A DNA stretch of 64,000 bases from Desulfovibrio mangrovi (GTDB lineage: Bacteria > Desulfobacterota > Desulfovibrionia > Desulfovibrionales > Desulfovibrionaceae): contig NZ_CP104208.1 in NCBI RefSeq assembly GCF_026230175.1, positions 1,488,001 through 1,552,000 on the forward strand. The letters are read 5' to 3'. Each line of letters opens with the position of its first letter. Position 1 is the stretch's first letter. A model generated the notes under the pieces. It saw only the letters and a list, made by a program, of their open reading frames with translations. It searched no databases and was not told where the DNA came from. Both the position numbers and the translations under genes were made by a program. Below, piece after piece: positions 28,184-48,692 of the stretch.

Positions 28184-28265
<82 letters not shown>

Positions 28266-28267
28266 TT

Positions 28268-28306
28268 AAGGCCTGACAAGGATTTACACCTAGTCAGGCC
28301 TTTTCT
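28268..28306 (+). terminator. Terminator directly after tRNA-Thr
   Basis: Stem AAGGCCTGAC / GTCAGGCCTT with a 14-base loop and T4, just inside attL. It would insulate the element from tRNA transcription. Confidence 0.75.
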
Positions 28307-28847
28307 TGTACTGTTCAATACTAGTCAGAATCGGGCATTTTTTTACGCACAATGCGTAAAATTTGCGTAAAGTTTGCGTAAAGTTTTTTGCGCCAAATTT
28401 TGCCATTTTCCGGCCCTCTGCCGCCGCCCATCCCCCCCTTGCGCAATGCGGCCTTTACGCAATTCCTGCTCCCCCTCCTGCCCCTCATAGCTTTACGCAT
28501 ATTGCGTGAAGCGGGGACGGAAAAAACATATCCGTTCCGCTATCCATCAGGGCTCCGGCCCCACGACTCCATCTTACCCACTCCCGAGATTTGGCACTTT
28601 TTTGCAATCTCTTGCACAGTGTGCAAAAGGCCATCCTCCTGTTCAGCCCGCACCGCGCCTGCTTTAAGCCCCTGTTGCACGCGCATTTTTGTTGCACAAA
28701 ATCGCCCCAAAAACTCCGAAGGCGTGGGGCGGAGGAGTTCGATTTTTTCCGGCGGCGGCGTTTTTTCTGGATATGTGGAACCGGGCTTGATAGTAGAAAG
28801 CAATCCATACCGGTTTTACTTTTCGCACAGAACTGCAGGGGGTTAGA
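28307..28847. other. Gene-free left end of the element
   Basis: Apart from the arm-site cluster it holds TTGCACA-type repeats: TTGCACAGTGTGCAA, a 15-bp palindrome, at 28612-28626; TTGCAC at 28675; and TTGCACA at 28692. These precede the HNH operon and may bind its regulator. Open frames on both strands here lack ribosome sites and biased codons, so I do not call any. Confidence 0.5.
28342..28510. repeat. Left cluster of integrase arm-type sites
   Basis: Direct copies of TGCGTAAA(A/G)T start at 28353, 28364 and 28375, exactly 11 bp apart. Inverted copies (TTTACGCA) lie at 28342, 28454 and 28492, and a variant follows at 28503. The same 11-bp unit occurs twice next to attR. Confidence 0.75.
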
Positions 28848-29864
28848 ATGGAAAAATGGTCACGCAGAGAAGTAGAGCTAGCAGCAGAATCCTACTTCTC
28901 CATGCTTAAACTTGAACTATCAGGAATTTCCTATAACAAAACCAAATTCAGAAACAAACTATCAGAACTTCTACCAAATAGAAGCGATGGATCTATTGAA
29001 TGGAAACATCAAAACATCAGCGCTGCTTTGGCAAATAACAATTTCCCGCACATTTTCGGATACAAACCACATTTCAATTACCAAAAGATACTTGACTCTA
29101 TTATTCCAGACATGGCTTTAAAACGCGACATACCTCAATACCCAATATCTAGCAAAACTTGGGAAATATTATCTACAAGCGAGATATTAAAAACAGTCGA
29201 CCAATCATGCATAAAGCACAAAATGACCCGCATACCTAAGAATGTTCGATTCTATTTTGGAGCAGATCCAAAAGCAAAAATGCGGGATATTCTTCTTGAA
29301 TTTTATGGCCAAGAATATCAAGTGACACTTAGAACAGACCCAACAAAGACACGTTCGTCTTTAGTTTGGCGCACCGATCTTTCCAAGATGATCAAGAAAC
29401 ATTGCGCGCTCCTGCCACCAAACACCTCTAAAATGCTCCTGTTTACAAAAACAGAACGCCAAGATTCATACAATCTATCGATTGTTACAGAAAATAACGA
29501 TGAAAACTTCCACTTACGTGACGAAGAATTCCACCCCAGACCTCGGATGGAAGGAACGCTAACAAATCGTAGCTCCATCGTGCGCAAGCGCAGTCAGGCC
29601 AACAGGCTGGCGGCCATCAAGCATCACGGACTAAATTGTGTGGTTTGCGGGTTTAACTTTGAGAAGTTCTATGGCCCGCTGGGACAAGGATTCATTGAGA
29701 TTCATCATGTGAATCCGTTGCACGAAGAGGATGGGGAGAGGGAAGTGGATCCAGTGCAGGATTTAGTGCCGGTCTGTTCGAACTGCCATCGGATGTTGCA
29801 CAAGTCATCTAAAAGCATACACACCATTCAAACTCTAATAGAAGCAGCAAACGACTATGCTTAA
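28848..29864 (+). CDS. HNH endonuclease with N-terminal recognition-like domain
   Basis: 338 residues. The C-terminal HNH domain (about 255-335) has C-V-V-C-G-F, I-E-I-H-H-V-N-P-L and C-S-N-C-H-R-M-L-H, so zinc ligands and the catalytic His are present. The N-terminal region (S-R-R-E-V-E-L-A-A-E-S-Y-F, then K-H-Q-N-I-S-A) resembles a domain I associate with restriction-type HNH proteins; that part is recalled, not searched. The first two thirds are AT-rich and the HNH part is GC-rich, suggesting a fusion. The gene overlaps the next by 8 bp, so the two form an operon. A restriction or anti-phage role is inferred. Confidence 0.75.
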   Translation: MEKWSRREVELAAESYFSMLKLELSGISYNKTKFRNKLSELLPNRSDGSIEWKHQNISAALANNNFPHIFGYKPHFNYQKILDSIIPDMALKRDIPQYPISSKTWEILSTSEILKTVDQSCIKHKMTRIPKNVRFYFGADPKAKMRDILLEFYGQEYQVTLRTDPTKTRSSLVWRTDLSKMIKKHCALLPPNTSKMLLFTKTERQDSYNLSIVTENNDENFHLRDEEFHPRPRMEGTLTNRSSIVRKRSQANRLAAIKHHGLNCVVCGFNFEKFYGPLGQGFIEIHHVNPLHEEDGEREVDPVQDLVPVCSNCHRMLHKSSKSIHTIQTLIEAANDYA

Positions 29865-30834
29865 CACAATATTTACACTGCTATCAATAATAGTTTCCAT
29901 CATAATTATAGATATATATGCATCAAAAAAAGATCCTAAATACACCAATATAAAAGAAATGTTATATGCAGCTTTCCTTTTAGTGATATCAACAACTAGA
30001 TTATCGTACTATTTCCAAAAAAAAATTCTTAAAAATCATCCTCTAAAACTAAAATCTCACATATTATCAAGAAATAATATTGATGTACTATTTTCAGTAA
30101 CGTTGTTTATATCATATATTATATACAAAAAGGAACACAACATAATTGCATCGTCAGCAATACTATATATTTGTACATTAATATATATATTATTATTCAA
30201 CAAGTCAAACAAAGCACTATCTCCAGCAATATATCTTCCGATAGCTCACACAGCAGTATACATAAGCACAATTTTTACGAATACACACATACTATTAATA
30301 ATATACCTCATACACAGATTTAATGAAATAGTAATCGCATTTACGGATGATATAAACGATAAACTTTGCAGCAAGACATCATCATCTCAAATAACTGCAC
30401 ATGAGAGAATAACACTTGCAGCAAAATCATATATTGAAATGATATTTATATTCTCTATACTATACTCATCAATGGAAGGCGATATTACTATAAGCTACAT
30501 AAAACCAATCATGACAAGCCTTGACAACCAATTAACATTCTCAATCGACACCCTACAACCAATTAAAGAAGAATACGGAACAATAAATATATTAAAATCA
30601 AAACTAAATTGCATTCCAGACATTTACCAAGACATCACAACACTTTGCCTAATAATATCGCAAAGAATAATGACACTAACCCTGCTCGTCACCACCTTCA
30701 CAGTATACAACAACAGAGCTTTTTACGAACTTTCCCAAAAAGCACCCCGAGAAGATTGCAAAAACTGCATGCCTTACAACACCGCCAAGCGGCAATGCGC
30801 CCAAAACCCAGACAACATTTGCCCATTCAAATAG
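29857..30834 (+). CDS. Polytopic membrane protein with C-terminal cysteine cluster
   Basis: 325 residues, not recognised. It is very AT-rich, with about six to seven hydrophobic segments (L-L-S-I-I-V-S-I-I-I-I-D at the start; I-I-Y-L-I-H; I-F-I-F-S-I-L-Y). The last 35 residues have C-x2-C-x9-C-x7-C, which could bind zinc or an Fe-S cluster. It overlaps the HNH gene by 8 bp and ends before a terminator, so it is a fixed partner. A membrane partner beside a nuclease is a common layout in abortive-infection systems, but this pairing is not one I know. Confidence 0.6.
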   Translation: MLNTIFTLLSIIVSIIIIDIYASKKDPKYTNIKEMLYAAFLLVISTTRLSYYFQKKILKNHPLKLKSHILSRNNIDVLFSVTLFISYIIYKKEHNIIASSAILYICTLIYILLFNKSNKALSPAIYLPIAHTAVYISTIFTNTHILLIIYLIHRFNEIVIAFTDDINDKLCSKTSSSQITAHERITLAAKSYIEMIFIFSILYSSMEGDITISYIKPIMTSLDNQLTFSIDTLQPIKEEYGTINILKSKLNCIPDIYQDITTLCLIISQRIMTLTLLVTTFTVYNNRAFYELSQKAPREDCKNCMPYNTAKRQCAQNPDNICPFK

Positions 30835-30842
30835 CACCACCC

Positions 30843-30874
30843 AAAAGCCCCGCCATCCGGCGGGGCCTCCTTTT
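30843..30874. terminator. Terminator between convergent cargo units
   Basis: AAAGCCCCGCC / GGCGGGGC stem with a T-rich side on each strand. Confidence 0.8.
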
Positions 30875-30890
30875 GCACCACTCACACGAC

Positions 30891-31703
30891 CTATTGCACT
30901 TCAAGAGTATTACAGCTCTCCATCAGCTCCTCCACGTCATCAGGAAGATCCGGGTAGAAGTTGAAGCCTGTGCGCCGTTCAATCTCATCCACGGTAACCA
31001 GGTACTGACTCATAGGATTTGATTCTGTGGCATTCTGCTCAAAGATATACCCTGCAACCCGCATAGGCGGCTGACCAGGCCTAGCGTCCAGATCCTCAAC
31101 TCCTATGATCTTCCAGTAGCCGGAAGGTATCTGGTGGTCTTTTTTCGCATTCGGCAATTTAGGCATCTCGCGTTCATACAAAGTGCCAGTAATCACATAA
31201 ACAGGTTCTCGCTCTGCCAGCGATCGCACATCATGTTCAAGCTTGGCCCACGGCCCACGATTCAGCTTCATCCTCTGAGGCGTTATGTTCGAAAGGTAGT
31301 TTGTCAGCCACCAATACGGCGTCCCCTTAAATGATGCCAAAGGCGCCTGATGCCCCCGATCCATCTTCAGGGCATTAAACGCCCCATCATAATCACTCGG
31401 AGAAAGCGTTTCTTCCTTGGGCAGGTCAGGATCTCGCTTCCAATTTCGATCCCTTTCACTTGCCCCCGTCACACTGTTCACATCCAGCTTGTACCCTACC
31501 CAGTCCGCAAACTTGGTATACGGGTTATTGCTCAGAACATAGATAACCCTGCGAACAATCAGATTTTGGGAAGAAGTACCCTCTGGCAACCCGAACTGAA
31601 CCTGCTCATACGGATCCACCCTATACACCACACCATCTTGCGCATAGGCCGCTGACACAAGCACCGCCAGAGCGCACACAAACGCAACAGTCAACTTACG
31701 CAT
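30891..31703 (-). CDS. Secreted DNA/RNA non-specific endonuclease (NUC1 family)
   Basis: 270 residues from ATG 31703. The open frame extends to 31781 but would run through a terminator, and GGGAGG lies four bases before 31703. It has a signal peptide (M-R-K-L-T-V-A-F-V-C-A-L-A ending near A-Y-A). The beta-beta-alpha-metal active site is D-R-G-H-Q-A-P (His catalytic), with N-I-T-P-Q downstream supplying the metal Asn. Homologues degrade DNA and RNA. In an integrated element it could digest incoming DNA in the periplasm or act as a nutrient nuclease. It appears to be a single-gene unit. Confidence 0.8.
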   Translation of the reverse strand: MRKLTVAFVCALAVLVSAAYAQDGVVYRVDPYEQVQFGLPEGTSSQNLIVRRVIYVLSNNPYTKFADWVGYKLDVNSVTGASERDRNWKRDPDLPKEETLSPSDYDGAFNALKMDRGHQAPLASFKGTPYWWLTNYLSNITPQRMKLNRGPWAKLEHDVRSLAEREPVYVITGTLYEREMPKLPNAKKDHQIPSGYWKIIGVEDLDARPGQPPMRVAGYIFEQNATESNPMSQYLVTVDEIERRTGFNFYPDLPDDVEELMESCNTLEVQ

Positions 31704-31767
31704 ATCGCCTCCCAGTTTGGCGAAAATATGCGTCGCTGCCACATTTATAGACATGATAAATAATATA

Positions 31768-31794
31768 GAAAGCCCCGCCATTACAGCGGGGCTT
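31768..31794 (-). terminator. Terminator of the 31858 small gene
   Basis: AGCCCCGC / GCGGGGCT stem with T-run on the minus strand. Confidence 0.7.
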
Positions 31795-31804
31795 CTCCAT
31801 TCCT

Positions 31805-31850
31805 ACACTACCTACACCATCCCTACACCATCCCTACACCATCCCTCACC
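31805..31850. repeat. Short tandem repeat (CCATCCCTACA units)
   Basis: An 11-bp unit CCATCCCTACA is repeated with a truncated final copy, just after the small gene's stop. Replication slippage is a likely origin. Confidence 0.7.
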
Positions 31851-31857
31851 CCACCCC

Positions 31858-32049
31858 TCACTCCCGCACATGCAGGTGCGCATCATCAAGGCGTGCGGCG
31901 CAGTCTTCTATGCGTTCGCCAACCAGCCGCAGCAGGCCGAGCAGCTCGCTCGGGCCGTCCTGCAGGGCATCGCAGATAAAGCGCATGCCGCCGGCCAGTT
32001 CGTAGAGTTGGAGAACAACATCGGAGTTGTTGTTGAGATTACGGGTCAT
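31858..32049 (-). CDS. Small protein of CI-like module 1, paralogue of 40157-40363
   Basis: 63 residues, unrecognised, but clearly homologous to the protein at 40157-40363. Both share Q-L-Y-E, G-x-R-F-x-C, A-L-Q-D-G-P-S-x-L-L-G, L-R-L, E-R-x-E-D-C-A-A and L-D-D. It looks helical and acidic. The ATG at 32049 has CGGAGG seven bases upstream, and that ribosome site overlaps seqC, the target of the leader RNA. The gene sits where P4 has kil/eta-type genes downstream of its CI RNA. The function of this protein is unknown. Confidence 0.65.
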   Translation of the reverse strand: MTRNLNNNSDVVLQLYELAGGMRFICDALQDGPSELLGLLRLVGERIEDCAARLDDAHLHVRE

Positions 32050-32057
32050 GATGGGCC

Positions 32058-32072
32058 TCCGTTTGATTTGAG
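32058..32072 (-). promoter_or_regulatory. seqC-like target over the small gene's ribosome site
   Basis: Plus-strand TCCGTTTGATTTGAG is identical to 32292-32306. Its minus-strand form runs into CGGAGG, the ribosome site of the 31858 gene, so pairing with the leader RNA would hide it. Confidence 0.7.
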
Positions 32073-32098
32073 ATTTGAGAGAAAGCCAAAAAAAGAGC

Positions 32099-32159
32099 GA
32101 CCAAGTGCTCTCAGGTTCAAACGGAACCCCCGGGCCTCACGGCTACCGGACACTTGGCC
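32099..32159 (-). ncRNA. CI-like leader RNA, module 1 (seqB)
   Basis: Minus-strand stem GGCCAAGTG (32159-32151) / CACTTGGTC (32107-32099), nine pairs with one G-U, then T7. Inside it TCCGTTTGAACCTGAG (32125-32110) is nearly complementary to two identical upstream/downstream 15-mers. This is the layout of phage P4 CI RNA, where seqB pairs with seqA and seqC to force termination. The size (about 61 nt) is also close to that RNA's 69 nt. Function is inferred. Confidence 0.65.
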
Positions 32160-32244
32160 GCTATATTTACCACATGATGACGGTCATGCGGCAAAAGCAG
32201 TCAAATTGGGATGCACCTATCCCTAGGATACAGGGAAAAGCGCA

Positions 32245-32289
32245 TAAAAAAGCCCCGACTAAAGCGCACGGATGCGCGGGACTCGGGGG
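32245..32289 (-). terminator. Leader terminator t1 of CI-like module 1
   Basis: Minus-strand CCCCGAGT...AGTCGGGG with an inner GCGC/GCGC stem and T6, between seqA and the leader RNA. Confidence 0.65.
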
Positions 32290-32291
32290 AG

Positions 32292-32306
32292 TCCGTTTGA
32301 TTTGAG
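32292..32306 (-). promoter_or_regulatory. seqA-like target at the transcript start
   Basis: A 15-mer identical to the one at 32058-32072, at or just after the predicted transcription start of the module. Confidence 0.7.
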
Positions 32307-32313
32307 GAGGTCA

Positions 32314-32342
32314 GGATTACAGAGAGGGGTGGTGGGTGTCAA
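32314..32342 (-). promoter_or_regulatory. Promoter of CI-like module 1
   Basis: TTGACA (32342-32337), 17-bp spacer and TAATCC (32319-32314) on the minus strand. The start would be near 32307. The sequence TTGACACCCACC recurs in the second module at 40863-40857. Confidence 0.65.
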
Positions 32343-32501
32343 GAGGTGGCGGAATAAAGCCCACCTAAGGACAGCAAGACCGAGGACTAGTAAAAAACCA
32401 CCGCTATTGATGTGCACAATCTTTACAAAAACTAATTTTCGATGTCAAAAGGCATCACTCGCACACCAACCGTAGCCATCCGACATAAGGGATATCAGAC
32501 C

Positions 32502-33479
32502 ATGACCAACGGAGATCTCAAAACAACAACTCTGAATTGGGCTCAACATCCAATTTGGGACACCATATCCTCTGCCACCGAATTACCTGTTTTCAAAAAT
32601 AAAACAGATTTAGAGAATACAGTAAACGCGCGCATCAAAATAACACTCAAAATACTAGAGTTTATAGCATCAACAACAGAAAAAAATGACAATACACTTA
32701 TCGCCATAAACAAACTTGAATGTATGATAACGTCAGGCACCATAATCAGGATAATATCCTTAATTAATTCATCTCTTGAATTGAACAAACTCAACTATGA
32801 CAAGTATGTAACTTCCATTCTTCACAGATGTGCAATTGAGAGCATTACGAGACTCCAATGGATTTTCACCCATACAGATAAAAATAGCTTCGATATATAT
32901 ATTGAAGATGGTCTGAATAATATCGAAAAAAGATTTGAGTACTCAAAAAAAAATTTCTATCCAGACACACAAGAATGCGATGAATACTCAAGAACCATGA
33001 ACAAGGCCATTGATGTCATATATAATTCTTCAGGAAAAAAAAGAAATCCAGTTATTAAAAATAGAAAAATGCCAAAATACAATAAAATATTAGACGAGAT
33101 TGGAAATTCAAACTCATACATACTGTATCAGATGTTTCCATCATCATCAATTCATGGATCATACGATGAGTTACTTGTAACTCGATATGATAAAAAAGAA
33201 TATGAACAACCGTCCAACGATACTTTTACTACCTACAACATACTAATAACCGATGAGGTAATACGACTTATAGAATTATTCATTGAACACATTCTTTCCG
33301 ACAAGACAGCTCACAAATTGCTTTCTAGCAATCTAGATAAATTCCGCCAAGCATCGCGGGCCCTTATTACCCAACTATCACACTTCCACCACGCACCGCC
33401 CCCCTACCCACTAACCCCCTCTAACCTATTCCTATCCGCCCCAACAGCCGCCGCATGCCCATGCACCACGGCGCTTTGA
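32502..33479 (+). CDS. AT-rich cargo protein with chimeric C-terminus
   Basis: 325 residues from ATG 32502 (AAGGGA upstream; the frame opens at 32442). Predominantly helical and AT-rich, with R-C-A-I-E-S-I-T-R-L-Q-W and H-G-S-Y-D-E-L; a faint resemblance to DUF5677-like proteins is possible. The last 25 or so residues are proline/alanine-rich and are read from the antisense of a duplicated gpV 3' end (33405-33533), so the natural stop was probably lost or moved when the cassettes recombined. Function unknown; position beside CI-like module 1. Confidence 0.55.
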   Translation: MTNGDLKTTTLNWAQHPIWDTISSATELPVFKNKTDLENTVNARIKITLKILEFIASTTEKNDNTLIAINKLECMITSGTIIRIISLINSSLELNKLNYDKYVTSILHRCAIESITRLQWIFTHTDKNSFDIYIEDGLNNIEKRFEYSKKNFYPDTQECDEYSRTMNKAIDVIYNSSGKKRNPVIKNRKMPKYNKILDEIGNSNSYILYQMFPSSSIHGSYDELLVTRYDKKEYEQPSNDTFTTYNILITDEVIRLIELFIEHILSDKTAHKLLSSNLDKFRQASRALITQLSHFHHAPPPYPLTPSNLFLSAPTAAACPCTTAL

Positions 33480-33533
33480 TCCGGCTTCGGAACAGCGCCG
33501 TTGTTATGGGTGTGGTCCGCCAGCACGTGCAAG
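33405..33533 (-). pseudogene. Remnant of the gpV (spike) gene 3' end
   Basis: 129 bp aligned without gaps to 35701-35829, the gpV 3' end. Read on the minus strand, it keeps 42 codons in frame through the same stop: L-H-V-L-A-D-H-T-H, P-K-P-D-Q-S, V-V-H-G-H-A, L-E-G-V-S-G. Many differences are silent, so it derives from a diverged allele rather than a fresh duplication. It lies left of the ASCH-X-GNAT cassette. Confidence 0.8.
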
Positions 33534-33546
33534 ACAAAGGGCAAAA

Positions 33547-33571
33547 GAAAAGCCCCGCCGAAGCGGGGCTG
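33547..33571 (-). terminator. Terminator of the ASCH-X-GNAT operon
   Basis: AGCCCCGC / GCGGGGCT stem followed by T4 on the minus strand. Confidence 0.75.
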
Positions 33572-33574
33572 TTA

Positions 33575-34075
33575 CTAGTGAATATAGCTAGGAGGGCACC
33601 CATCTAGATATCCATTGAATACAAACTCATTCATACCAGATACATAGTAGGAAAACCGGACATCCTTCAATTCAAATCCCTTCGACAGAAGCAAGGGGGC
33701 TAATGAGTCCACCCGTTTTTCAGAAACCGTAATCATGGGTAAAACCCCATTAAAAGATCGCAAACTAGCATCTAACAACTGGCGTCCTATCCCACATTTA
33801 CGAAAGGATTTAGCCACCAACAAAGTACAAATCTTATTCTCAGTTAAGCTAGATTTTAAAATAGCCAAACCAGCAATCTTCCCTCTATGCTTAGCGAGTA
33901 AAATCTCACGCTCCCCCAAAACAAGCCCAAAGCCTACTTTAGTCTGTAGCCAGTTCGTAAAGCCTGGATAATCGGCGTCAAGACCCAGAAGCAGAGGGGC
34001 AACAGCTCTGAGATGTCCAGTCACCATAGGCATCGTCAATGCACCATATTGAAAGACTTTCTCAATTTGAACCAT
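33575..34075 (-). CDS. GNAT-family acetyltransferase (third gene of ASCH-X-GNAT operon)
   Basis: 166 residues with the GNAT fold. Motif A is L-L-V-A-K-S-F-R-K-C-G-I-G-R-Q-L-L (the R/K-x-x-G-x-G acetyl-CoA loop), preceded by the beta-strand I-A-G-L-A-I-L-K. The N-terminal half lacks an obvious substrate signature. It overlaps the preceding gene (stop 34062, start 34075) by 14 bp, so translation is probably coupled. GNAT toxins in toxin-antitoxin pairs acetylate aminoacyl-tRNA, but this protein lacks a recognised antitoxin partner. Function unassigned. Confidence 0.75.
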   Translation of the reverse strand: MVQIEKVFQYGALTMPMVTGHLRAVAPLLLGLDADYPGFTNWLQTKVGFGLVLGEREILLAKHRGKIAGLAILKSSLTENKICTLLVAKSFRKCGIGRQLLDASLRSFNGVLPMITVSEKRVDSLAPLLLSKGFELKDVRFSYYVSGMNEFVFNGYLDGCPPSYIH

Positions 34076-35180
34076 TTTCTACGCTCCCCTTTTTGCTGCC
34101 ACCTAAAGGGCTAACCGGAATTTCACCCGAAGAGTTTTCGGAGCCCCGTTTCTGCTGCAACCATTCGCGACCTGTATCATATATATAATTCGACATGCAA
34201 CCCAGCGCAACCGTAAAAAAAAGGACTATCACCGCATAACGCAACCAGAGAAGGCAAGTCGTGCGATCATATTTATTTTTGATCAAGACCAAGCAAGACT
34301 TCACATCTCCTTTAAATTTCCAATGATATGCCAACACACCATTATGTCTTTTCGAATTCAAATAAGCATGATCAATATACTTCTTCCAGACATCACACTC
34401 CAAGTACCTACATACCCCGTACTGTGGTGAGTTAACTAAAATCTCATTGTCAGAACTACATACATAAAAAATATGGACCTTATTAAAAACAAACTCTCCT
34501 TTATCTCTTATCTCATCCCTCAATCTCTTACTTATAGTTCTCAATTCATTGATTTGCAAGTCAGTAATTTCTACACGAGACAAAAACCTTTGAAGATAAG
34601 AATTAGCAAGCTTCTCTTCTGATATACATCCTAAAAGGGCTTCACCTTTCATTCTTAATCGAAAATAAACTTTTCCATTAATATTATCTGGCACTAAAAC
34701 GCTAAAAACGACACCTTCTCCTTCAATTATTGACATATCATAATCACTATGTGTCAATTCATTGAGAATACAAAACAATTCGTCATCTTTTGAAACACGA
34801 TGCTGATAAGCATCGTTAATTACATTAATTCCAAGATCTTCATTAAATACAGAACTCAGGACAGATACATCCTTCATATAGGGAACTAAATCCTGAATAC
34901 CACCAGAATAATATGTTCCATTATGCTTCGGAATAAAGATATTAAACTTAGAAATCTCCTTTGGATTGTATATCATTATTCCAATATCAAAAAAATGATC
35001 ATGGATTTTTCCAATCCCTTTACTAGGGAGCCTCCATATATTTATATGCAAGTCTGCCTGCTGACTATTGGGGAAAGAAGATTCCCACATCGATTTTTTT
35101 GTAAATTTACTAAATTTTTTATTTGAATTTATTTTTTCATTTATCGTAGGCCAAATAACAATACTACTTCTCCCAGCCAT
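34062..35180 (-). CDS. Unrecognised protein with C-terminal TM helix (second gene of ASCH-X-GNAT operon)
   Basis: 372 residues from ATG 35180 (the frame opens at 35234). A soluble N-terminal part is followed by one clear membrane helix near residues 320-345 (L-L-W-L-R-Y-A-V-I-V-L-F-F-T-V-A-L) and a short hydrophilic tail. Local features are H-I-N-I-W-R-L and I-H-D-H-F-F-D-I-G-I-M-I-Y. I recognise no family. It starts 2 bp after the ASCH gene stop and overlaps the GNAT gene by 14 bp. A membrane tether for the other two products is possible. Confidence 0.55.
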   Translation of the reverse strand: MAGRSSIVIWPTINEKINSNKKFSKFTKKSMWESSFPNSQQADLHINIWRLPSKGIGKIHDHFFDIGIMIYNPKEISKFNIFIPKHNGTYYSGGIQDLVPYMKDVSVLSSVFNEDLGINVINDAYQHRVSKDDELFCILNELTHSDYDMSIIEGEGVVFSVLVPDNINGKVYFRLRMKGEALLGCISEEKLANSYLQRFLSRVEITDLQINELRTISKRLRDEIRDKGEFVFNKVHIFYVCSSDNEILVNSPQYGVCRYLECDVWKKYIDHAYLNSKRHNGVLAYHWKFKGDVKSCLVLIKNKYDRTTCLLWLRYAVIVLFFTVALGCMSNYIYDTGREWLQQKRGSENSSGEIPVSPLGGSKKGSVENGSN

Positions 35181-35182
35181 AA

Positions 35183-35614
35183 CTACCTCGAAATATTTAT
35201 ATATGAAAATGATTGAGGAGCTCTCAACCCACACTGAAAATCATCCAGACAGTAGTATTTTGAAAATTTAAAATGTCTACCTATTACAAAAGCATGCCCT
35301 ATTTCTTTTCCATAAAAATACTTAAAAAACCTATCCTCATCTATGCCAGAACAATCAGCACATTTATTCCACAACATCTCAGGATGCATAGATATACAGC
35401 TGTCAGAATAAAAACATCCTGTTATCATTTTAACAGGAGCAGTTTCATATACAACAAAAAGCCTGACTCCATCTCTTGTTTTTTGCTTTCTGAATTCGAA
35501 TTTTTTTTCAGAATTATAAATCTTTTCTACAAATTCAGGATGGATAGAAATCAAACAGACAACAGACGGTACATCCATCTTCGTAACATCTCTTATCATT
35601 TCAACCAGATTCAC
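35183..35614 (-). CDS. ASCH-domain protein (first gene of ASCH-X-GNAT operon)
   Basis: 143 residues from the GTG at 35614, chosen because AGGAG lies seven bases upstream; the frame extends to 35644. The ASCH signature is I-S-I-H-P-E-F-V-E-K-I-Y-N-S-E-K-K-F-E-F-R-K (about residues 21-44), followed by beta-strands with V-Y-E-T-A-P-V and I-G-H-A-F-V. ASCH domains resemble PUA folds and bind RNA, or read modified nucleobases. The pairing with GNAT and the membrane protein is tight, so the three likely work together. The cluster lies at the 3' end of gpV, a usual site for phage cargo genes. Confidence 0.7.
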   Translation of the reverse strand: MNLVEMIRDVTKMDVPSVVCLISIHPEFVEKIYNSEKKFEFRKQKTRDGVRLFVVYETAPVKMITGCFYSDSCISMHPEMLWNKCADCSGIDEDRFFKYFYGKEIGHAFVIGRHFKFSKYYCLDDFQCGLRAPQSFSYINISR

Positions 35615-35699
35615 AGCACGACTCCTGTTCAAAAAAACACACACCCACGAGCAGTTATTTATATATAATTACTCAAAAACACAACTCCTTCAACTACTT

Positions 35700-36824
35700 C
35701 TACCCACTAACCCCCTCTAACCTATCCCTATCCGCTCCCACAGCCCCCGCATGCCCATGCACCACTCCACTCTGGTCTGGCTTGGGTATAGCCCCGCCTT
35801 GATGGGTGTGGTCCGCCAGCACGTGCAAGGCATCGCGCACGTGTTCCCACACGTCCAGCATCAGCGGCAGCAGGCTCACTTCTCCGGCACCAAGACGCAG
35901 GGTATTGCCGCACTGCAGGTTGATATTGGCAGCGGTAATGGTCTTGTCGCCGCCCACGCTTTCCGTGGCGTTTCCGCCCGTATTCTGAGCGCTGTTACCG
36001 GTTACGGTGCAGGCATCATCTGCGCCCACGGTAGTGGTGCGCCCTGCGCCTATGGTCTCGGTTACGGACTTGGCCACCGTCGTTGTCACAGCCCCGCGCA
36101 CATCGGTGCGCACATTGCGACCTACCACCTGCAGCGCATCCTGCCCCACGGTGCAGGCCATGTCTCTGGACGTAGTCAACGCCAGCGAGTCACCGGCAGA
36201 CAGCCGCGCAGAACCTGCCGTCAGCAGGCGCAGCGCGCCAAGCGCTTCCACACGCTTTACGCCGTCCACACGTTCGGTGCTGTTCTCGCTCACGCGGCGG
36301 ATCTCGCGCGCCACGTTCTCCATCTTGCGCACGGCGGTGATGATGCGGTCGCGGCTTGCGTCCGTGATGGCCATGTCCGTTTCGCGCGTCCAGTTACCAT
36401 CCGCGTCTATCCCTTGGTGCGCGGCCTCGCTCTGCATCCAACGCAGTTCACCGGCCTGCAGCATGGGCAGGGATGTACCCAAGGGATACACCTGACTGAT
36501 GAGCGGATGGTCCGGCCTGCCATAGGCAAATTCCACCACCACAAGCGCCCCGGTGCGCGGATAGCCGAACAGTCCAGCCTCATGGCCACACCCGACCGGC
36601 ACAGGCAGCGGCACGGCCTCATAGACTGGGTACGCGGAATCCGGCTCCCCTTCCGGCGTGAGCACCTGAATGTCCACGGCATAACGGGGCCGGTACCGCT
36701 CGCAGGTGTCACCGGCTTGTGGCGTTTCCGCCACGGCCAGCACTCGCGCATAACGCGGCAGATGCAGCCCTGCGGCGATCTCCGGAAAGAGCTTGAGCAC
36801 TATTTTTCTAATTGCTTCGCGCAT
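35700..36824 (-). CDS. P2 gpV-like baseplate spike protein
   Basis: 374 residues. The N-terminal OB-fold-like part (R-Y-A-R-V-L-A-V-A-E-T, V-G-C-G-H-E-A-G-L-F) is followed by threonine/valine-rich triple beta-helix repeats (T-T-V-A-K-S-V-T-E-T-I-G, T-T-T-V-G-A-D). The end carries H-T-H-Q-G-G and V-V-H-G-H-A, typical of the iron-binding spike apex (HxH). It is the membrane-piercing tip of contractile tails. The rest of the tail genes are missing here, so its survival suggests another use or a deletion remnant. Confidence 0.75.
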   Translation of the reverse strand: MREAIRKIVLKLFPEIAAGLHLPRYARVLAVAETPQAGDTCERYRPRYAVDIQVLTPEGEPDSAYPVYEAVPLPVPVGCGHEAGLFGYPRTGALVVVEFAYGRPDHPLISQVYPLGTSLPMLQAGELRWMQSEAAHQGIDADGNWTRETDMAITDASRDRIITAVRKMENVAREIRRVSENSTERVDGVKRVEALGALRLLTAGSARLSAGDSLALTTSRDMACTVGQDALQVVGRNVRTDVRGAVTTTVAKSVTETIGAGRTTTVGADDACTVTGNSAQNTGGNATESVGGDKTITAANINLQCGNTLRLGAGEVSLLPLMLDVWEHVRDALHVLADHTHQGGAIPKPDQSGVVHGHAGAVGADRDRLEGVSG

Positions 36825-36945
36825 TTCACCACCATGCTATCCCCGCGCAGCTGCAGCGCGGTCACATATTCCCCGTTCAGCAGCACGCCGGGACGCAATG
36901 CCGGAATCACGGGCAGGGTTTTGCCGCCGCCTGCAATGGGATGCG
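36800..36945 (-). pseudogene. 3' fragment of the gene preceding gpV
   Basis: In the minus-strand frame overlapping the gpV start by 25 bp, codons read K-T-L-P-V-I-P-A-L-R-P-G-V-L-L-N-G, then L-R-G-D-S-M-V-V-K and a stop at 36802-36800. The left end breaks off near 36945, where the terminase stub begins on the other strand. I cannot name the gene. Confidence 0.5.
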
Positions 36946-37134
36946 GCAGACCGCGAGATTTCGCACGCCTTCATGATGATTCGCCAGACCACCACGCCCA
37001 CCGGCGCCATGACCTATGCCGCCAACAGATCAGAGACCACAGGCCATGCGGACGCCGCCTTTGCCATTCTGCATGCGGTTTCGCACGAACCTTTAGCCAG
37101 ACCCCGCGGCGGCAGTCGCGTGGTTATAGGATAG
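36940..37134 (+). pseudogene. C-terminal stub of P2 gpP-like terminase large subunit
   Basis: The frame reads A-D-R-E-I-S-H-A-F-M-M-I-R-Q-T-T-T, then M-T-Y-A-A-N-R-S-E-T-T-G-H-A-D-A-A-F-A-I-L-H-A and ends at 37134. It matches the C-terminal RNase-H-like end of P2 terminase (x-T-F-A-A-x-R-S-x-x-T-G-H-A-D). All upstream terminase sequence is gone, replaced by the antisense fragment of the gpV-side gene, so this is a deletion or inversion scar. Confidence 0.7.
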
Positions 37135-37143
37135 GAGCACAGC

Positions 37144-38214
37144 ATGACAACCAAATGCACCGCCCGCGCCTTTACCTTCGGCGAGCCGGAACCGGTTCTG
37201 GACGGCTACCAGTATGCCGACCATCTGGGCGTGTACCTGCTGGACAACGGCCGCTACTACCAGACGCCCGTGCCCTTTACCGGCCTTGCGCGCCTGCTCT
37301 ATGCAAACGCCTACCACGGCCCGCTGCTGGAGTTTAAAACGCTCATGGTCATGCGCGGGTTTGTACCTTCCGCCGCCATTTCGCGCCGCAGCATGGAGGC
37401 CGCAGCCACGGACTATTCCGTGTTTGCAAACGCCTATCTGCAGCTGCATCGCAACGGCTATGGCGAGGTGGTGCGCGCAACGCACCTGCCCGCCATAAAC
37501 ATGCGCCGCATGAAAGAGCCGGATACCTACGGCCTGCTGCAAGTTGCCGGAGAGCTTACGCCCTTTGCCGCGGGCGAGGTGTTTCACTTCCGCAACTACG
37601 ATGTAACCCAGAGCATATACGGCAAGCCGCGCTATCTGGGCGCCATTCAGAGCATGCTGCTGAACGAGGACGCCACCCTGTTCCGTCGCCGCTATTACAA
37701 GAACGGCGCGCACATGGGCTATGTGTTCTACACCAGCGGGGCCGACCTGGAAGAAGCCGATCAGGACCGCATTCAAAAGGCCATAGAAGGCGCAAAGGGC
37801 CTTGGCAACTTTCGCAACATGTATCTGCACATTCCCAACGGCGAGGCCAAAGCCGTGCAGATTCTGCCCGTAGGCGATTTTTCCAGCAAGGACGAGCTGG
37901 AAAAGATAAAGAACATCTCCCGTGACGACATAATAGCCGCGCACCGCATTCCGCCCGCCATGGCAAACGTTATTCCCACAAACACCGCAGGGTTCGGCGA
38001 TATTGAAGCCTATGATCGGGTGTATGAGAAAAACGAGATTGCCCCCGTGCGCCAGATGCTGCTGGACGTGAACGAGGTGCTGCGCCCTGATCTGGCAGTG
38101 CGGTGGCAGGTGGCAGCCCCGCTGCCGGAGGATAGTGAAGAGGATGCCGCCGCAGAAAGCATGGCCGGCAAGGGCAAAAGCAAGGGGAAAGATGCAGCGT
38201 TTAAAGCGGGATAG
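37144..38214 (+). CDS. P2 gpQ-like phage portal protein
   Basis: 356 residues, close to P2 gpQ (344). Recognised from D-Y-S-V-F-A-N-A-Y-L, L-P-A-I-N-M-R-R-M-K, E-V-F-H-F-R-N-Y-D-V-T-Q-S-I-Y-G-K-P-R-Y-L, the AHRIPPAMANVIP segment at about residues 267-279 and F-G-D-I-E-A-Y-D-R-V-Y. It forms the dodecameric DNA entry vertex. A Lys-rich tail (K-G-K-S-K-G-K) ends it. The ATG has AGGAG nine bases upstream. It follows the terminase stub by 9 bp and precedes the Ogr gene, and appears intact. Confidence 0.85.
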   Translation: MTTKCTARAFTFGEPEPVLDGYQYADHLGVYLLDNGRYYQTPVPFTGLARLLYANAYHGPLLEFKTLMVMRGFVPSAAISRRSMEAAATDYSVFANAYLQLHRNGYGEVVRATHLPAINMRRMKEPDTYGLLQVAGELTPFAAGEVFHFRNYDVTQSIYGKPRYLGAIQSMLLNEDATLFRRRYYKNGAHMGYVFYTSGADLEEADQDRIQKAIEGAKGLGNFRNMYLHIPNGEAKAVQILPVGDFSSKDELEKIKNISRDDIIAAHRIPPAMANVIPTNTAGFGDIEAYDRVYEKNEIAPVRQMLLDVNEVLRPDLAVRWQVAAPLPEDSEEDAAAESMAGKGKSKGKDAAFKAG

Positions 38215-38278
38215 CTCCCGTCATCGATTGACAGATACAGACGCGAAGACATACTCATAGCTGAAGAGGAATGTGACA

Positions 38279-38536
38279 ATGAGACCTGTATTAGTTCGAT
38301 GCAACAGATGCGGGAGCGCTGCCGCCATAGACTCCAGCAAGGAGATTTCTGACGTGGTGAAGCACCTGTATTGCATGTGTAGGAATGTGGAGTGCGGTCA
38401 CACCTTTGTGGTCAGCATGGAGTTCTCTCACACCCTCTCCCCTTCTGCCCTTGATCTGCCGGAAGACGTTAGAGAACGGCTGAAAGGGTATAGCAGGTCA
38501 CAACAGCAATTGCTATTTTCATCAATACAATCTTAA
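38279..38536 (+). CDS. Ogr/Delta-like zinc-finger late-gene activator
   Basis: 85 residues. The Ogr/Delta zinc ligands are seen as C-N-R-C-G-S, then C-R-N-V-E-C-G-H-T-F (C-x2-C plus C-x4-C). P2 Ogr and P4 Delta bind late promoters and recruit RNA polymerase. A GTG at 38273 is possible, but the ATG at 38279 is better placed for GAGGA. It follows the portal gene by 64 bp on the same strand. A satellite could use it to turn on helper late genes. Confidence 0.8.
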   Translation: MRPVLVRCNRCGSAAAIDSSKEISDVVKHLYCMCRNVECGHTFVVSMEFSHTLSPSALDLPEDVRERLKGYSRSQQQLLFSSIQS

Positions 38537-38551
38537 AACAACGAGCACACG

Positions 38552-38983
38552 ATGCAAAATATAGACTTTAAAAACTTTATAAGAAACCACAAAATCAAAC
38601 AAAACAATAATGAATACTACACAATAGAAAGATTTAGAACTGAGAGTAAGCATGCACAAAACAGTGTAAAGCCCAATGAACAACAAGTAGATTACATACT
38701 AAAGCTAATTATTTATTCAGCATACATAATACCTCCAACACTATTTGGATTCTTATTATCATCTTTTATCAATAACAATTACTCAAATAGCATAACAATG
38801 GATGGAATAGTATCATCTGTTGCAACAATATCAGCAATTTTAGCTGCACTATACTGCGGCAAGACATCAGTAAACCATCAGAAATATGTATATGAAAAAG
38901 ATCTTTACAATACTAACAAAAAGCAATCCTTATGCTCGATACTAGCCATACAAAAAAATTTCACCTATGCACACATCTACTAG
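38552..38983 (+). CDS. AT-rich two-TM protein, probably frameshifted (first half)
   Basis: 143 residues, unrecognised. Two membrane helices lie near residues 52-72 and 87-106 (I-P-P-T-L-F-G-F-L-L; I-S-A-I-L-A-A-L-Y-C). The frame ends soon after a run of seven A (38952-38958). Removing one A joins it to the frame that continues at 38967, giving one protein of about 265 residues. A 17-bp overlap between the two is the alternative reading. It follows ogr by 15 bp. Confidence 0.45.
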   Translation: MQNIDFKNFIRNHKIKQNNNEYYTIERFRTESKHAQNSVKPNEQQVDYILKLIIYSAYIIPPTLFGFLLSSFINNNYSNSITMDGIVSSVATISAILAALYCGKTSVNHQKYVYEKDLYNTNKKQSLCSILAIQKNFTYAHIY

Positions 38984-39356
38984 ATCAAATATAGCAAAAA
39001 TTCTCTGTGATATAGACACACACGATCAAAACAATGAAACAATAGAAACAAAAATTGAAGCAATTTTTTTAAATATAAATACAGATTTTAACGAAATAAT
39101 AAGCATCGAGCAATTAAACACTCTTAACCTAAAATCACAAACTGCAATTATAAATTTTTTAAGCACCATAGAAGAAATAAAACACATACCAACAGAGCTA
39201 ATATTTGAAAATTACCTTATAGATACACCATATGCTGCAGAAAGAATATACATGCACTACAAACTACGAATATCTTCCATTTTGACAAAACTAGACAATA
39301 CTGAACGAGAATTAGAAGAATCACTCGATCACTCATATCGCCAAATAAATTCATAA
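38967..39356 (+). CDS. Soluble half of the same cargo protein
   Basis: 129 residues, unrecognised and helical, with I-A-K-I-L-C-D-I-D near the start and a C-terminal coiled-coil-like segment (S-I-L-T-K-L-D-N-T-E-R-E-L). The ATG has no ribosome site, and the frame is open without an ATG from 38946, which favours a single interrupted gene. Confidence 0.4.
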   Translation: MHTSTRSNIAKILCDIDTHDQNNETIETKIEAIFLNINTDFNEIISIEQLNTLNLKSQTAIINFLSTIEEIKHIPTELIFENYLIDTPYAAERIYMHYKLRISSILTKLDNTERELEESLDHSYRQINS

Positions 39357-39389
39357 CTACAAAACCAATTTATTAAAATACCTATCAAT

Positions 39390-39809
39390 ATGCAAAACCC
39401 TCTAGCGAAATACACAATAAAGTTTAGCGCAACAGGCCAGCTTTCACATTATCGATACTTATATTCAATGATTTTAACCATACTCATACTGACACTAACA
39501 CTTAAAACATCAGATTCACAACATATTCCACTAATTTACAACACAACACTGAGTTCATATTTTAACCAATTTCAATATGGCAACGACATAATACTGTCAA
39601 TAATAAGCAGCATAGTTGCTAGCTTTATATTTTATTACTTCGTAGTCTACAGACCAAAAGTACATAACGCAAACAAACTACTAGCTAGCCTATACGCCGG
39701 ATCAACTGTAATGCTCCAAGGACTGACAGGACTATCAACAGACCGATTATATATGAACATTTTCTACACCAATCAGGAAATAAAAAATTCACCGACACAC
39801 CATACATAA
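39390..39809 (+). CDS. AT-rich two-TM protein, probably frameshifted (first half)
   Basis: 139 residues with two hydrophobic helices (I-L-T-I-L-I-L-T-L-T-L and I-I-S-S-I-V-A-S-F-I-F-Y). A heptamer A-AAA-AAT lies at 39782-39788 in the right phase for -1 slippage, and the -1 frame stays open to 40060. Either a programmed frameshift, a real 1-base loss, or a sequencing error could explain it. It follows the previous cargo gene by 33 bp. Confidence 0.45.
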   Translation: MQNPLAKYTIKFSATGQLSHYRYLYSMILTILILTLTLKTSDSQHIPLIYNTTLSSYFNQFQYGNDIILSIISSIVASFIFYYFVVYRPKVHNANKLLASLYAGSTVMLQGLTGLSTDRLYMNIFYTNQEIKNSPTHHT

Positions 39810-40060
39810 ATGACAAAGTTGACAAAAAAATTATATCTGCATCTTTTGCAATAATAAATATAGCATCAATATACCTACACAAAGACTTGGACATAAACGA
39901 CAAAGACGAATTAACCACACATAGAATCCTGTACCTCATGCAATCAATCAAAACACTCATATATTCAGATACTCCAAACCCTGAAGAAATACAGAATGAA
40001 ACTACTACACTATTCAATAAGTACCTAGATCTATTTAGCGGAAAGCTTACCAAATCCTAA
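39788..40060 (+). pseudogene. Continuation of the 39390 gene in the -1 frame
   Basis: 91 codons including a stop, with coding-like composition (F-T-D-T-P-Y-I-N-D-K and L-F-N-K-Y-L-D-L-F). No start codon or ribosome site of its own. Fused to the upstream frame it would make a protein of about 222 residues. Confidence 0.5.
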
Positions 40061-40076
40061 CCACTCTCCAAAACAA

Positions 40077-40107
40077 CAAAAGCCCCGCCGAATCCGGCGG
40101 GGCTTTT
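40077..40107. terminator. Bidirectional terminator between convergent units
   Basis: AAAAGCCCCGCCG / CGGCGGGGCTTTTT stem, U/A tracts on both sides. Confidence 0.85.
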
Positions 40108-40156
40108 TCATTTCTTCATCTTCTTCTCTTCACTTCCTCAAAAACACCAGACCACC

Positions 40157-40363
40157 TTACCCATCCCTGGACGTGGCGCGCAGATTCTCGGGCGGCAGAT
40201 CATCCAGACAGGCGGCGCAGTCTTCCAGCCGCTCATGCATCAGGCGAAGGATGCCCAGCAGGTCGGAAGGACCATCCTGCAGGGCCGTGCAGACAAAACG
40301 CAGGCCATAAGAGATTTCATACAACTGCCTAGGTACATCTGGGATATTCGTGCGGGATTTCAT
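40157..40363 (-). CDS. Small protein of CI-like module 2, paralogue of 31858-32049
   Basis: 68 residues. It shares Q-L-Y-E, G-L-R-F-V-C, A-L-Q-D-G-P-S-D-L-L-G, L-R-L, E-R-L-E-D-C-A-A and L-D-D with the module 1 protein. Unlike module 1, another small gene sits in front of it, overlapping its start (stop 40360, start 40363). Function unknown. Its conserved Cys in R-F-x-C and E-D-C-A-A is notable. Confidence 0.65.
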   Translation of the reverse strand: MKSRTNIPDVPRQLYEISYGLRFVCTALQDGPSDLLGILRLMHERLEDCAACLDDLPPENLRATSRDG

Positions 40364-40575
40364 GAATCCACCCTCCTTTCAATCGTGTTTGCATTTTGCA
40401 CTACACGATCAATCAGGTGATCCAGTGCCACACTGTGGGCCGGAAGAGCATCATCGCGCAGCCGGTTCAATGTGCCGGCGATGTCTCGCAGATCTTCTGC
40501 GACCGATTGGATAGCGGGCTGGATAACGGGCGGTGGAACAGGCCGGGGAAGGTTAGGGGTAGCGTTCTGTGCCAT
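40360..40575 (-). CDS. Small proline-rich/helical protein of CI-like module 2
   Basis: 71 residues. The N-terminus is proline-rich (R-P-V-P-P-P-V-I-Q-P), followed by a helical region with A-E-D-L-R-D-I-A-G-T-L-N-R-L. It is the first gene after the module 2 leader RNA. AGGAGG lies five bases before the ATG. It has no relative in module 1. Function unknown. Confidence 0.55.
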   Translation of the reverse strand: MAQNATPNLPRPVPPPVIQPAIQSVAEDLRDIAGTLNRLRDDALPAHSVALDHLIDRVVQNANTIERRVDS

Positions 40576-40624
40576 GGGGCACCTCCTCTTGTGATTTGTT
40601 CGGTTGGCCCCTCAGAATAAAAGA

Positions 40625-40703
40625 GGCCGGGAGCTGAACACCGTCACAAGGCGGCTGGAGGATTTCCCCTTGCGGGTATTGTATAGCCTCCGAACTCCCG
40701 GCC
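40625..40703 (-). ncRNA. CI-like leader RNA, module 2
   Basis: Minus-strand GGCCGGGAG (40703-40695) / CTCCCGGCC (40633-40625) is a perfect 9-bp stem followed by TCTTTTATT. GTGTTCAGC (40641-40633) pairs with GCTGAACAC at 40827-40819 near the transcript start (seqA-like). A seqC partner near 40590-40610 is only partial. It has the same arrangement as module 1 with different pairing letters. Confidence 0.55.
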
Positions 40704-40838
40704 AAATATTGGCGCAGATATGGCAAATGCACGTCCCCCATCGAGTACAGGCCAAAGCTTGCACACAGGACGCAAAAAAACCACTACTAACGGGAGCGGA
40801 GACCGCTTGTGAAAAGGTGTGTTCAGCACCTAGTTGGA

Positions 40839-40868
40839 AGTATGTGGGATGATTGGGGTGGGTGTCAA
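40839..40868 (-). promoter_or_regulatory. Promoter of CI-like module 2
   Basis: TTGACA (40868-40863), 18-bp spacer, CATACT (40844-40839) on the minus strand, start near 40832. It shares TTGACACCCACC with module 1. A decayed copy with 20-bp spacing is at 41634-41665. Confidence 0.6.
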
Positions 40869-40877
40869 GGGGGTGGG

Positions 40878-41423: not shown

Positions 41424-41503
41424 AACAAGCCTCCTGCATCATATGCAGCGCCCAATACCAGCTTCACTGCAGAGAAGGAAGTGCCTGTGCGTGCTAGATA
41501 AAC

Positions 41504-41533
41504 AAAAACCCCGCCGAATTCGGCGGGGCTTCT
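41504..41533 (-). terminator. Terminator downstream of the KAP gene
   Basis: ACCCCGCCGAA / TTCGGCGGGGCT stem with T5 on the minus strand. Confidence 0.8.
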
Positions 41534-41587
41534 TCATGTAGTCATCGTCTTCTCTTCACACCCTCAGCGCCACCCTACCCCTTCCTG

Positions 41588-43164: not shown

Positions 43165-43194
43165 AATCTACCATAACCTCCACTCAACTTATCT

Positions 43195-47067: not shown

Positions 47068-47075
47068 TTTCCCTT

Positions 47076-47475: not shown

Positions 47476-47484
47476 ATGCATCAT

Positions 47485-48675: not shown

Positions 48676-48692
48676 TTTTGTTACTCCAAAAC

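What the first reader, a model, noticed from the sequence alone, without database searches (positions are those of the whole stretch)
31858..32342. P4 CI-like RNA immunity module upstream of a small gene (module 1)
Seen: promoter TTGACA-N17-TAATCC on the minus strand. A 15-mer (plus-strand TCCGTTTGATTTGAG) occurs right at the transcript start (32292-32306) and again over the ribosome site of the 63-aa gene (32058-32072). Between them a 9-bp-stemmed leader RNA with a T7 tail (32099-32159) contains a near-complement of the 15-mer (32110-32125), and a terminator-like hairpin lies at 32245-32289. Known: in phage P4, CI RNA seqB pairs with seqA and seqC and causes early transcription termination. 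Inference: this is an RNA-only immunity switch of the same kind.
Basis: partly seen in the sequence, partly recalled or inferred. Interest (0 to 1): 0.85.

Follow-up and report, generated by a model that had tools for sequence, protein, structure and literature searches.

The report
C4-type antisense RNA switch in prophage
A small prophage RNA appears to silence the gene next to it by pairing with the start of its own transcript and with the gene's ribosome site, and an RNA family usually called a virulence RNA seems to work in the same way.

Summary
A 15-mer lies at the predicted transcript start (32292-32306) and over the ribosome site of a 63-aa gene (32058-32072); between them is a small RNA whose loop is its near-complement. 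The RNA matches Rfam c4-2 (39 bits, cut-off 41, E 1e-6), in the clan that also takes phage P4's CI RNA.

In four lineages loop, leader target and RBS target change together; each RNA prefers its own targets, 8 of 8. Blocking seqA in silico flips an antiterminator to a terminator here (P 0.10 to 0.96). Two of the four lineages and P4 lack this, and in a third a control block does much of it.

Wider result: module 2 (40880-40157) is an sRNA-Xcc1 RNA before a paralogous small gene. In 96 and 116 different sRNA-Xcc1 loci the RNA fits its own leader and RBS better than others' (z 10-21), and phage antirepressors often follow. sRNA-Xcc1, treated in print as a virulence sRNA, looks like a C4-type phage regulator.

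The element is best read as a deleted P2-like prophage. Expression, termination, immunity and the 63-aa protein's role are untested.

The parts
32314..32342 (-). sigma-70-like promoter TTGACA-N17-TAATCC
   Evidence: read; similar in L004 and L005; not listed by the consensus scan
32292..32306 (-). seqA: leader target CTCAAATCAAACGGA at the predicted transcript start
   Evidence: own-RNA preference
32279..32294 (-). predicted antiterminator hairpin GGACUC-CCCC-GAGUCC; its 5' arm begins with the last three bases of seqA
32246..32288 (-). intrinsic terminator CCCCGA...UCGGGG-C-U6 behind seqA (the position that the isrK match has in P4)
   Evidence: P4 control
32091..32165 (-). c4-2-like (C4-clan) antisense RNA
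   Evidence: Rfam RF02944, 39.0 bits, cut-off 41, E 1e-6; fold z -4.07
32110..32125 (-). seqB: hairpin-2 loop and 3' linker, complementary to seqA and seqC
32058..32072 (-). seqC: second target, overlapping the Shine-Dalgarno sequence GGAGG of the 63-aa gene
31858..32049 (-). 63-aa small gene, proposed target of the switch; predicted helical hairpin, no family over cut-off
31769..31795 (-). terminator-like hairpin closing module 1
40803..40827 (-). module 2 seqA (GCTGAACAC...TCACAAGCGG)
40774..40799 (-). module 2 leader terminator CCGCU...AGUGG-U7; a GCGG-UCU-CCGC antiterminator overlaps it
40617..40703 (-). module 2 sRNA-Xcc1 RNA, loop CCUUGUGA
   Evidence: RF02221, 73.3 bits, cut-off 53
40588..40594 (-). 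module 2 seqC, TCACAAG just upstream of the SD
   Evidence: read; the ungapped score picked another downstream stretch for this locus
40360..40575 (-). module 2 first gene, 71 aa
40157..40363 (-). module 2 second gene, 68 aa, paralogue of the 63-aa protein (64% over 53 aa)
28208..55322 (.). carrying element: P2-like prophage remnant bounded by a 58-bp att-like repeat (28208-28265 in tRNA-Thr, 55265-55322)

Best explanation
Module 1 is a C4-type (P4 CI-like, nearest Rfam family c4-2) antisense RNA module of a P2-like prophage remnant. One promoter makes a leader with seqA, a terminator, the 75-nt RNA and then the 63-aa mRNA. The processed RNA pairs through its hairpin-2 loop and 3' linker with seqA of new transcripts and with seqC over the ribosome site. 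Pairing with seqC should block translation (inferred). Pairing with seqA takes away the 5' arm of an antiterminator hairpin, so that transcription ends at about 32246 before the RNA and gene are made again (inferred; predicted clearly for this leader, not for all relatives). The small gene is thus held off in a lysogen and opens when free RNA is scarce; it probably acts as an antirepressor-like or other early lytic function (inference). Shown by sequence: architecture, family match, co-change of RNA and both targets. Not shown: expression, processing, termination, repression, immunity.
For: Match to c4-2, E 1e-6; its genus relative L004 exceeds the cut-off (43.3 bits). P4 CI matches C4 of the same clan and P4's seqA leader matches isrK, with the same order leader-terminator-RNA-target. 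Four lineages (own, G009, G003, viral contig L300) carry different loops, and each RNA fits its own seqA and seqC best: 8 of 8 by score and by RNAduplex energy. Leader model: P(terminator) 0.10 free, 0.96 with seqA blocked, 0.05 with a control block. The same logic holds in sRNA-Xcc1 modules (leaders 47, 90). Of 11 places in the genus that match the 63-aa protein, 10 (own copy included) lie behind a c4-2 or sRNA-Xcc1 RNA (places); the eleventh is a 25-aa fragment match with E 0.095.
Against: The match is 2 bits below Rfam's cut-off; relative L005 is 8 below. The antiterminator is not predicted at equilibrium for G009 (0.83 free), L300 (0.97 free) or P4 (0.98 free), and in G003 a control block also raises the terminator from 0.19 to 0.78; so the attenuation step is not a conserved property of the c4-2 branch. 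Three of the seven more distant c4-2 matches (L035, L036, L039) show no convincing own targets (by eye). Module 1's gene is not a recognised antirepressor. No RNA or protein data exist here.
Confidence: 0.85

Rival explanations
1. Type I toxin-antitoxin module: the 63-aa protein harms the cell and the RNA is its antisense antitoxin, keeping the prophage in the cell.
For: An sRNA-Xcc1 cassette in Xanthomonas carries symE (PMC12444791 passages), and one of 95 sRNA-Xcc1-led genes scanned matches SymE.
Against: Most of the Pfam matches among those 95 genes are antirepressor families. The 63-aa model is a two-helix hairpin with many charged residues, not an obvious membrane toxin (no membrane predictor was run). 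The leader target seqA is not needed for a simple type I pair.
Confidence: 0.15
2. Purely translational control: the RNA blocks the ribosome site at seqC, and seqA is a decoy or sponge (IsrK-like) that titrates the RNA; the leader terminator is constitutive.
For: The terminator dominates without any block in L300, G009 and P4 leaders. In Gifsy-1 the short IsrK transcript acts in trans and shares complementarity with STnc1160 (PMC4825925 section 21).
Against: The own leader switches, and 33 of 66 and 36 of 81 analysable sRNA-Xcc1 leaders gain more than 0.2 when seqA is blocked, against 11 and 15 with a control block.
Confidence: 0.3
3. The repeats are DNA operators for a repressor protein, and the complementary RNA loop is chance.
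For: Two direct copies lie close to a promoter.
Against: Loop, seqA and seqC change together in four lineages, and the RNA has a family match and a strong fold.
Confidence: 0.03
4. Full P4-style superinfection immunity by RNA alone.
For: Same anatomy as P4 CI.
Against: The element looks like a P2-like prophage remnant; no immunity data; the target is one small gene closed by its own terminator-like hairpin, not a replication operon.
Confidence: 0.2

Closest known systems
c4-2 RNA (Rfam RF02944, clan CL00128)
   Same: Closing stem, two hairpins, U tail; E 1e-6 over the full model
   Different: 39.0 bits, 2 below the cut-off. The defining paper (Weinberg 2017, recalled) was not held, so I do not know whether it describes seqA/seqC targets.
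Phage P4 CI RNA with seqA/seqC (RF01695 C4; leader RF01394 isrK)
   Same: Order seqA - intrinsic terminator - RNA - seqC over the RBS; two-part complementarity by loop and 3' linker
   Different: P4 leader shows no antiterminator in the model; P4 controls replication genes, this RNA stands before a 63-aa gene in a P2-like prophage remnant
Gifsy-1 IsrK / STnc1160 / orf45-anrP (PMC4825925, section 21 read)
   Same: Terminated leader RNA, processed RNA behind it, small ORF under control; its authors compare it with P4 SeqA/CI
   Different: There anrP (an antirepressor by recall) is translationally coupled to orf45; here the operon ends after the small gene
P1/P7 C4 and the A. baumannii C4 group (PMC5320573, passages read)
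   Same: Antisense loops, one occluding the RBS; antirepressor control in P1 is recalled
   Different: Rfam family C4, not c4-2; different target genes
sRNA-Xcc1 (RF02221; PMC2996969, PMC12444791, PMC12189769, passages read)
   Same: Module 2 of the same element is a member (73.3 bits) with the same architecture and a paralogous gene
   Different: In print a virulence-linked, trans-acting sRNA, without clan in the Rfam table; here it behaves like a C4-type regulator of its own locus

Membership tests
C4 / CI antisense RNAs (Rfam clan CL00128), module 1 | Covariance-model match over the curated cut-off | tested here: inconclusive
   39.0 bits against 41, E 1e-6; close relatives L004 43.3, L005 32.8
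C4 / CI antisense RNAs (Rfam clan CL00128), module 1 | Closing stem, two hairpins, antisense loop, U tail | tested here: met
C4 / CI antisense RNAs (Rfam clan CL00128), module 1 | Complementary to a leader target and to the RBS of the gene it precedes | tested here: met
C4 / CI antisense RNAs (Rfam clan CL00128), module 1 | RNA and targets change together between relatives | tested here: met
   4 lineages, 8 of 8 own targets best
C4 / CI antisense RNAs (Rfam clan CL00128), module 1 | Processed from a longer transcript (RNase P in P1/P7) | not testable with these tools
   needs RNA mapping
C4 / CI antisense RNAs (Rfam clan CL00128), module 1 | Controls an antirepressor or other early lytic operon | tested here: inconclusive
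   63-aa protein without a family over cut-off; its relatives also stand behind sRNA-Xcc1 RNAs
P4-like satellite | No phage structural genes of its own | tested here: not met
   Portal and baseplate genes present; relative G009 has a P2-like structural block between the two modules. P4 genes such as psu and sid were not searched for.
sRNA-Xcc1 (RF02221), module 2 | Covariance-model match over the cut-off | tested here: met
   73.3 bits, cut-off 53
C4-type regulators, for the sRNA-Xcc1 family | RNA complementary to its own leader and own RBS more than to those of other loci | tested here: met
   96 loci: z 10.5 and 21.3; 121 loci: z 18.1 and 19.1; 116 after removing loci shared with the first set: z 17.7 and 19.0. 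Xanthomonas L111 and L126 keep the leader target, without a clear RBS target. Relatedness not corrected.
C4-type regulators, for the sRNA-Xcc1 family | Precedes phage antirepressor genes | tested here: met
   95 first ORFs: Bro-N 25, P22_AR_C 17, P22_AR_N 12, KilA-N 10, Rha 9, AntA 8; overlaps not resolved
Type I toxin-antitoxin | Gene product toxic, RNA antitoxic | not tested
   needs expression

The most novel reading that the evidence does not exclude
The whole sRNA-Xcc1 family, known as an integron-borne, HrpG/HrpX-controlled 'virulence' sRNA, is a large C4-type class of phage antisense switches. Its RNA, seqA and seqC coevolve so that each locus has its own specificity, mostly guarding antirepressor genes. 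Unlike P4, many of its leaders (and some c4-2 leaders such as module 1) add an antisense-operated antiterminator/terminator switch at seqA.
Probability: 0.55. Interest if true: 0.75.

Novelty: new variant of a known kind. Interest (0 to 1): 0.62.

Why it matters
It gives a testable mechanism for a widely annotated RNA family (sRNA-Xcc1) that is read in print as a virulence sRNA. It links that family with C4/CI RNAs through one prophage element that carries both RNA types in front of paralogous genes, and it offers loop-target sets of different specificity as ready-made tests. If the leader switch is real, one small RNA controls both transcription and translation of its own operon. Papers that predict host or plant targets for sRNA-Xcc1 homologues, or count its copies as virulence traits, would need re-reading.

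Tried and rejected
Tried: Rfam at the gathering cut-off does not list module 1; the E-value search does. The consensus promoter scan misses the promoter. Viral scan for a 16-mer of the c4-2 stem: 9 stretches, only 1 (L300) a real relative, the other 8 look like chance matches. More distant c4-2 matches (by eye): L035, L036 and L039 show no convincing own targets; L040 shows a repeated CTGTGAGGC target on both sides; L037, L038 and L041 look intermediate between c4-2 and sRNA-Xcc1. Large c4-2 searches are lower bounds: (5 of 395 genomes) lost the window's own match and (5 of 199) lost the G003 and G009 matches, probably because of stricter filters. One search is a lower bound too: it does not list the 70.3-bit sRNA-Xcc1 match in G005. 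Fold search of the 63-aa model against viral structures: 357 matches, none with E <= 0.001, a plain helical hairpin. Pfam and PHROGs on the small proteins: nothing over cut-off. The first attenuator test on module 1 relatives blocked part of the terminator arm and was redone with hand-chosen stretches. A locus-orientation error was corrected.

Rejected: P4-like satellite; DNA-operator reading; chance. Not done: a relatedness-corrected coevolution test; the permutation z-scores treat loci as independent. Dropped rows: 3 of 102 sRNA-Xcc1 places not fetched; 3 of 99 identical or with short flanks; 17 occurrences near a contig end and all duplicate RNAs; 5 of 121 loci of the second set repeat loci of the first (which gives the z-scores without them); 26 of 121 loci without a usable first ORF; 33 of 99 and 40 of 121 leaders not analysable for the terminator.

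Full report
Observation. The 15-mer occurs twice in the window, at 32058-32072 and 32292-32306; 2 of 20,000 Markov shuffles of the region had any 15-mer repeat. The RNA between the copies folds at -38.1 kcal/mol, z -4.07.

Identity. With an E-value threshold, Rfam puts 32165-32091 in c4-2 (RF02944, clan CL00128) at 39.0 bits, 2 below the cut-off, E 1e-6, over the full model. As a positive control, phage P4's immunity region scores 74.9 bits for C4 (RF01695, same clan), 60.8 for isrK over the seqA leader and its terminator, and 44.1 (cut-off 46.7) for c4-a1b1. In P4 the 3' linker TTCTCAC pairs with GTGAGAA in the leader and downstream (scored); the loop CCTGTGAA fits TTCACAGG in the leader and before the RBS (read by eye in the same output). 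Module 1 has the same order and the same two parts.

Coevolution in module 1. In the genus, 3 of 10 genomes have a c4-2 match, 1 over the cut-off, and one viral contig carries a fourth relative (L300). Loop, seqA and seqC differ between the four and change together. In a 4 by 4 comparison each RNA scores best with its own seqA and its own seqC, 8 of 8, by ungapped complement score and by RNAduplex energy. This is the strongest evidence for the pairing. More distant c4-2 matches are mixed (see Tried and rejected).

Leader switch. Folding favours GGACUC-CCCC-GAGUCC, which overlaps the terminator; without the seqA end the terminator folds. Blocking the seqA core raises P(terminator) from 0.10 to 0.96, a control block gives 0.05. 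Against this as a general rule: G003 0.19 to 0.97 but control 0.78; G009 0.83 to 0.95; L300 0.97 to 1.00; P4 0.98 throughout. So termination by this route is a proposal for this leader.

Module 2. 40703-40617 is sRNA-Xcc1 (RF02221, 73.3 bits, no clan in the table). Its loop CCUUGUGA fits UCACAAG in its own leader and at the RBS of a 71-aa gene, followed by a 68-aa paralogue of the 63-aa protein; leader model 0.25 free, 0.97 with the loop target blocked, 0.47 with a control block. One element thus carries two RNA families in front of paralogous small genes. Of 11 places in the genus matching the 63-aa protein, 10 (own copy included) lie behind one of the two RNAs (places).

sRNA-Xcc1 as a family. 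In the order, 47 of 199 genomes have a listed match (a lower bound); 99 of 102 places were held, 96 distinct were compared. Own leader and own RBS complement the RNA better than those of other loci: mean score 22.7 against 19.4 (z 10.5) and 22.6 against 16.1 (z 21.3); own best or tied in 8 and 25 of 96, in the top 5% in 20 and 45; shuffled own flanks give 19.0 and 16.2, the reverse complement of the RNA 19.6 and 14.2. A second, mostly different set was found by the exact core ATACAATACCCGNAAGGGGAA: 62 genome stretches, and 120 viral stretches with the scan cut at its limit. Its 121 distinct loci gave z 18.1 and 19.1; without 5 that repeat the first set, 116 loci (52 genome, 64 viral) gave z 17.7 and 19.0. 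The z-scores ignore relatedness. The first gene behind the RNA, found in 95 of 121 loci, matches Bro-N in 25, P22_AR_C 17, P22_AR_N 12, KilA-N 10, Rha 9, AntA 8, SymE 1 (overlaps between families not resolved). In Xanthomonas loci L111 and L126 the leader target is present but I saw no clear RBS target.

Attenuation in sRNA-Xcc1 leaders. In 66 of 99 leaders that could be analysed P(terminator) rose from 0.31 to 0.61 when the loop target was blocked, control block 0.38; 33 gained more than 0.2, 3 lost, control 11 gained (tally). In 81 of 121 of the second set: 0.36 to 0.58, control 0.41; 36 gained, 8 lost, control 15 gained. The effect exceeds the control (Wilcoxon 5e-6, 6e-4) but is far from universal: 14 of 66 and 17 of 81 leaders already exceed 0.8 without any block.

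Context. The modules lie in an element between a 58-bp repeat of the tRNA-Thr 3' end, 28208-28265 and 55265-55322, with integrase, excisionase-like gene, primase, Ogr, one portal and one baseplate gene. In the relative G009 the two modules flank a P2-like block with terminase, capsid, scaffold, sheath, baseplate and fibre genes. Baseplate and portal genes that are 19 kb apart there adjoin here at about 36927-36938, so the element is best read as a deleted P2-like prophage.

Literature. IsrK/STnc1160 in Gifsy-1 is compared by its authors with P4 SeqA/CI (PMC4825925, section 21 read). C4 in P1/P7 and A. baumannii: PMC5320573, passages. An antirepressor under a small RNA in N15 and P22: PMC10732415, passages. 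Small proteins that inactivate phage repressors: PMC10432266, passages. 18 held papers name sRNA-Xcc1; I saw passages of 10 of them. They treat it as a virulence-linked or trans-acting RNA (one suggests a virulence role from 15 copies in an Aeromonas genome, PMC8780938), list it, or only cite Chen 2011. Of the 18, 6 also hold 'repressor' (passages seen for 5 of these 6, for 'repressor' itself only in PMC8780938) and 1 holds 'C4 antisense', where both families are listed side by side without a link in the passages I saw. Searches for the Rfam numbers gave 5 papers, for C4-like antirepressor RNAs 0; one search listed 15 of 418. I found no paper that makes the C4 link, but subscription papers, among them Chen 2011, were not held.

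Verdict. Antisense pairing in the C4 manner is very likely; control of translation is likely; attenuation at 32246 is plausible; immunity and the role of the 63-aa protein are open. The sRNA-Xcc1 reading is the more novel result.

Noticed in passing
window 36927-36938: Baseplate and portal genes adjoin, while 19 kb of head, tail and packaging genes lie between them in relative G009; the element looks like a deletion derivative of a P2-like prophage.
   Followed up: partly
window 28208-28265 and 55265-55322: 58-bp direct repeat of the tRNA-Thr(CGT) 3' end: likely att sites of the element.
   Followed up: yes
window 54201-55070: The integrase ORF (289 aa) ends at position 137 of 172 of the Pfam catalytic-domain profile, so it may be cut short.
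   Followed up: no
L003 (own genome C1:341689-341779, minus): Third C4-type module in the genome: an sRNA-Xcc1 RNA with its own loop before a 94-aa gene.
   Followed up: partly
L037, L038, L041: RNAs that match c4-2 weakly but have sRNA-Xcc1-like leaders and linkers; the N-terminus of the protein behind L038's RNA is nearly that of the protein behind an sRNA-Xcc1 RNA in L057 (not scanned). Possible intermediates between the families.
   Followed up: partly
L042, L044, L048, L049 (genome G008): G008 has 13 listed sRNA-Xcc1 matches, several within a few hundred bases of each other, with different loops.
   Followed up: no
window 30891-31781 and 41662-43164: Possible cargo of the element: a non-specific DNA/RNA endonuclease and a KAP-family P-loop NTPase.
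   Followed up: no
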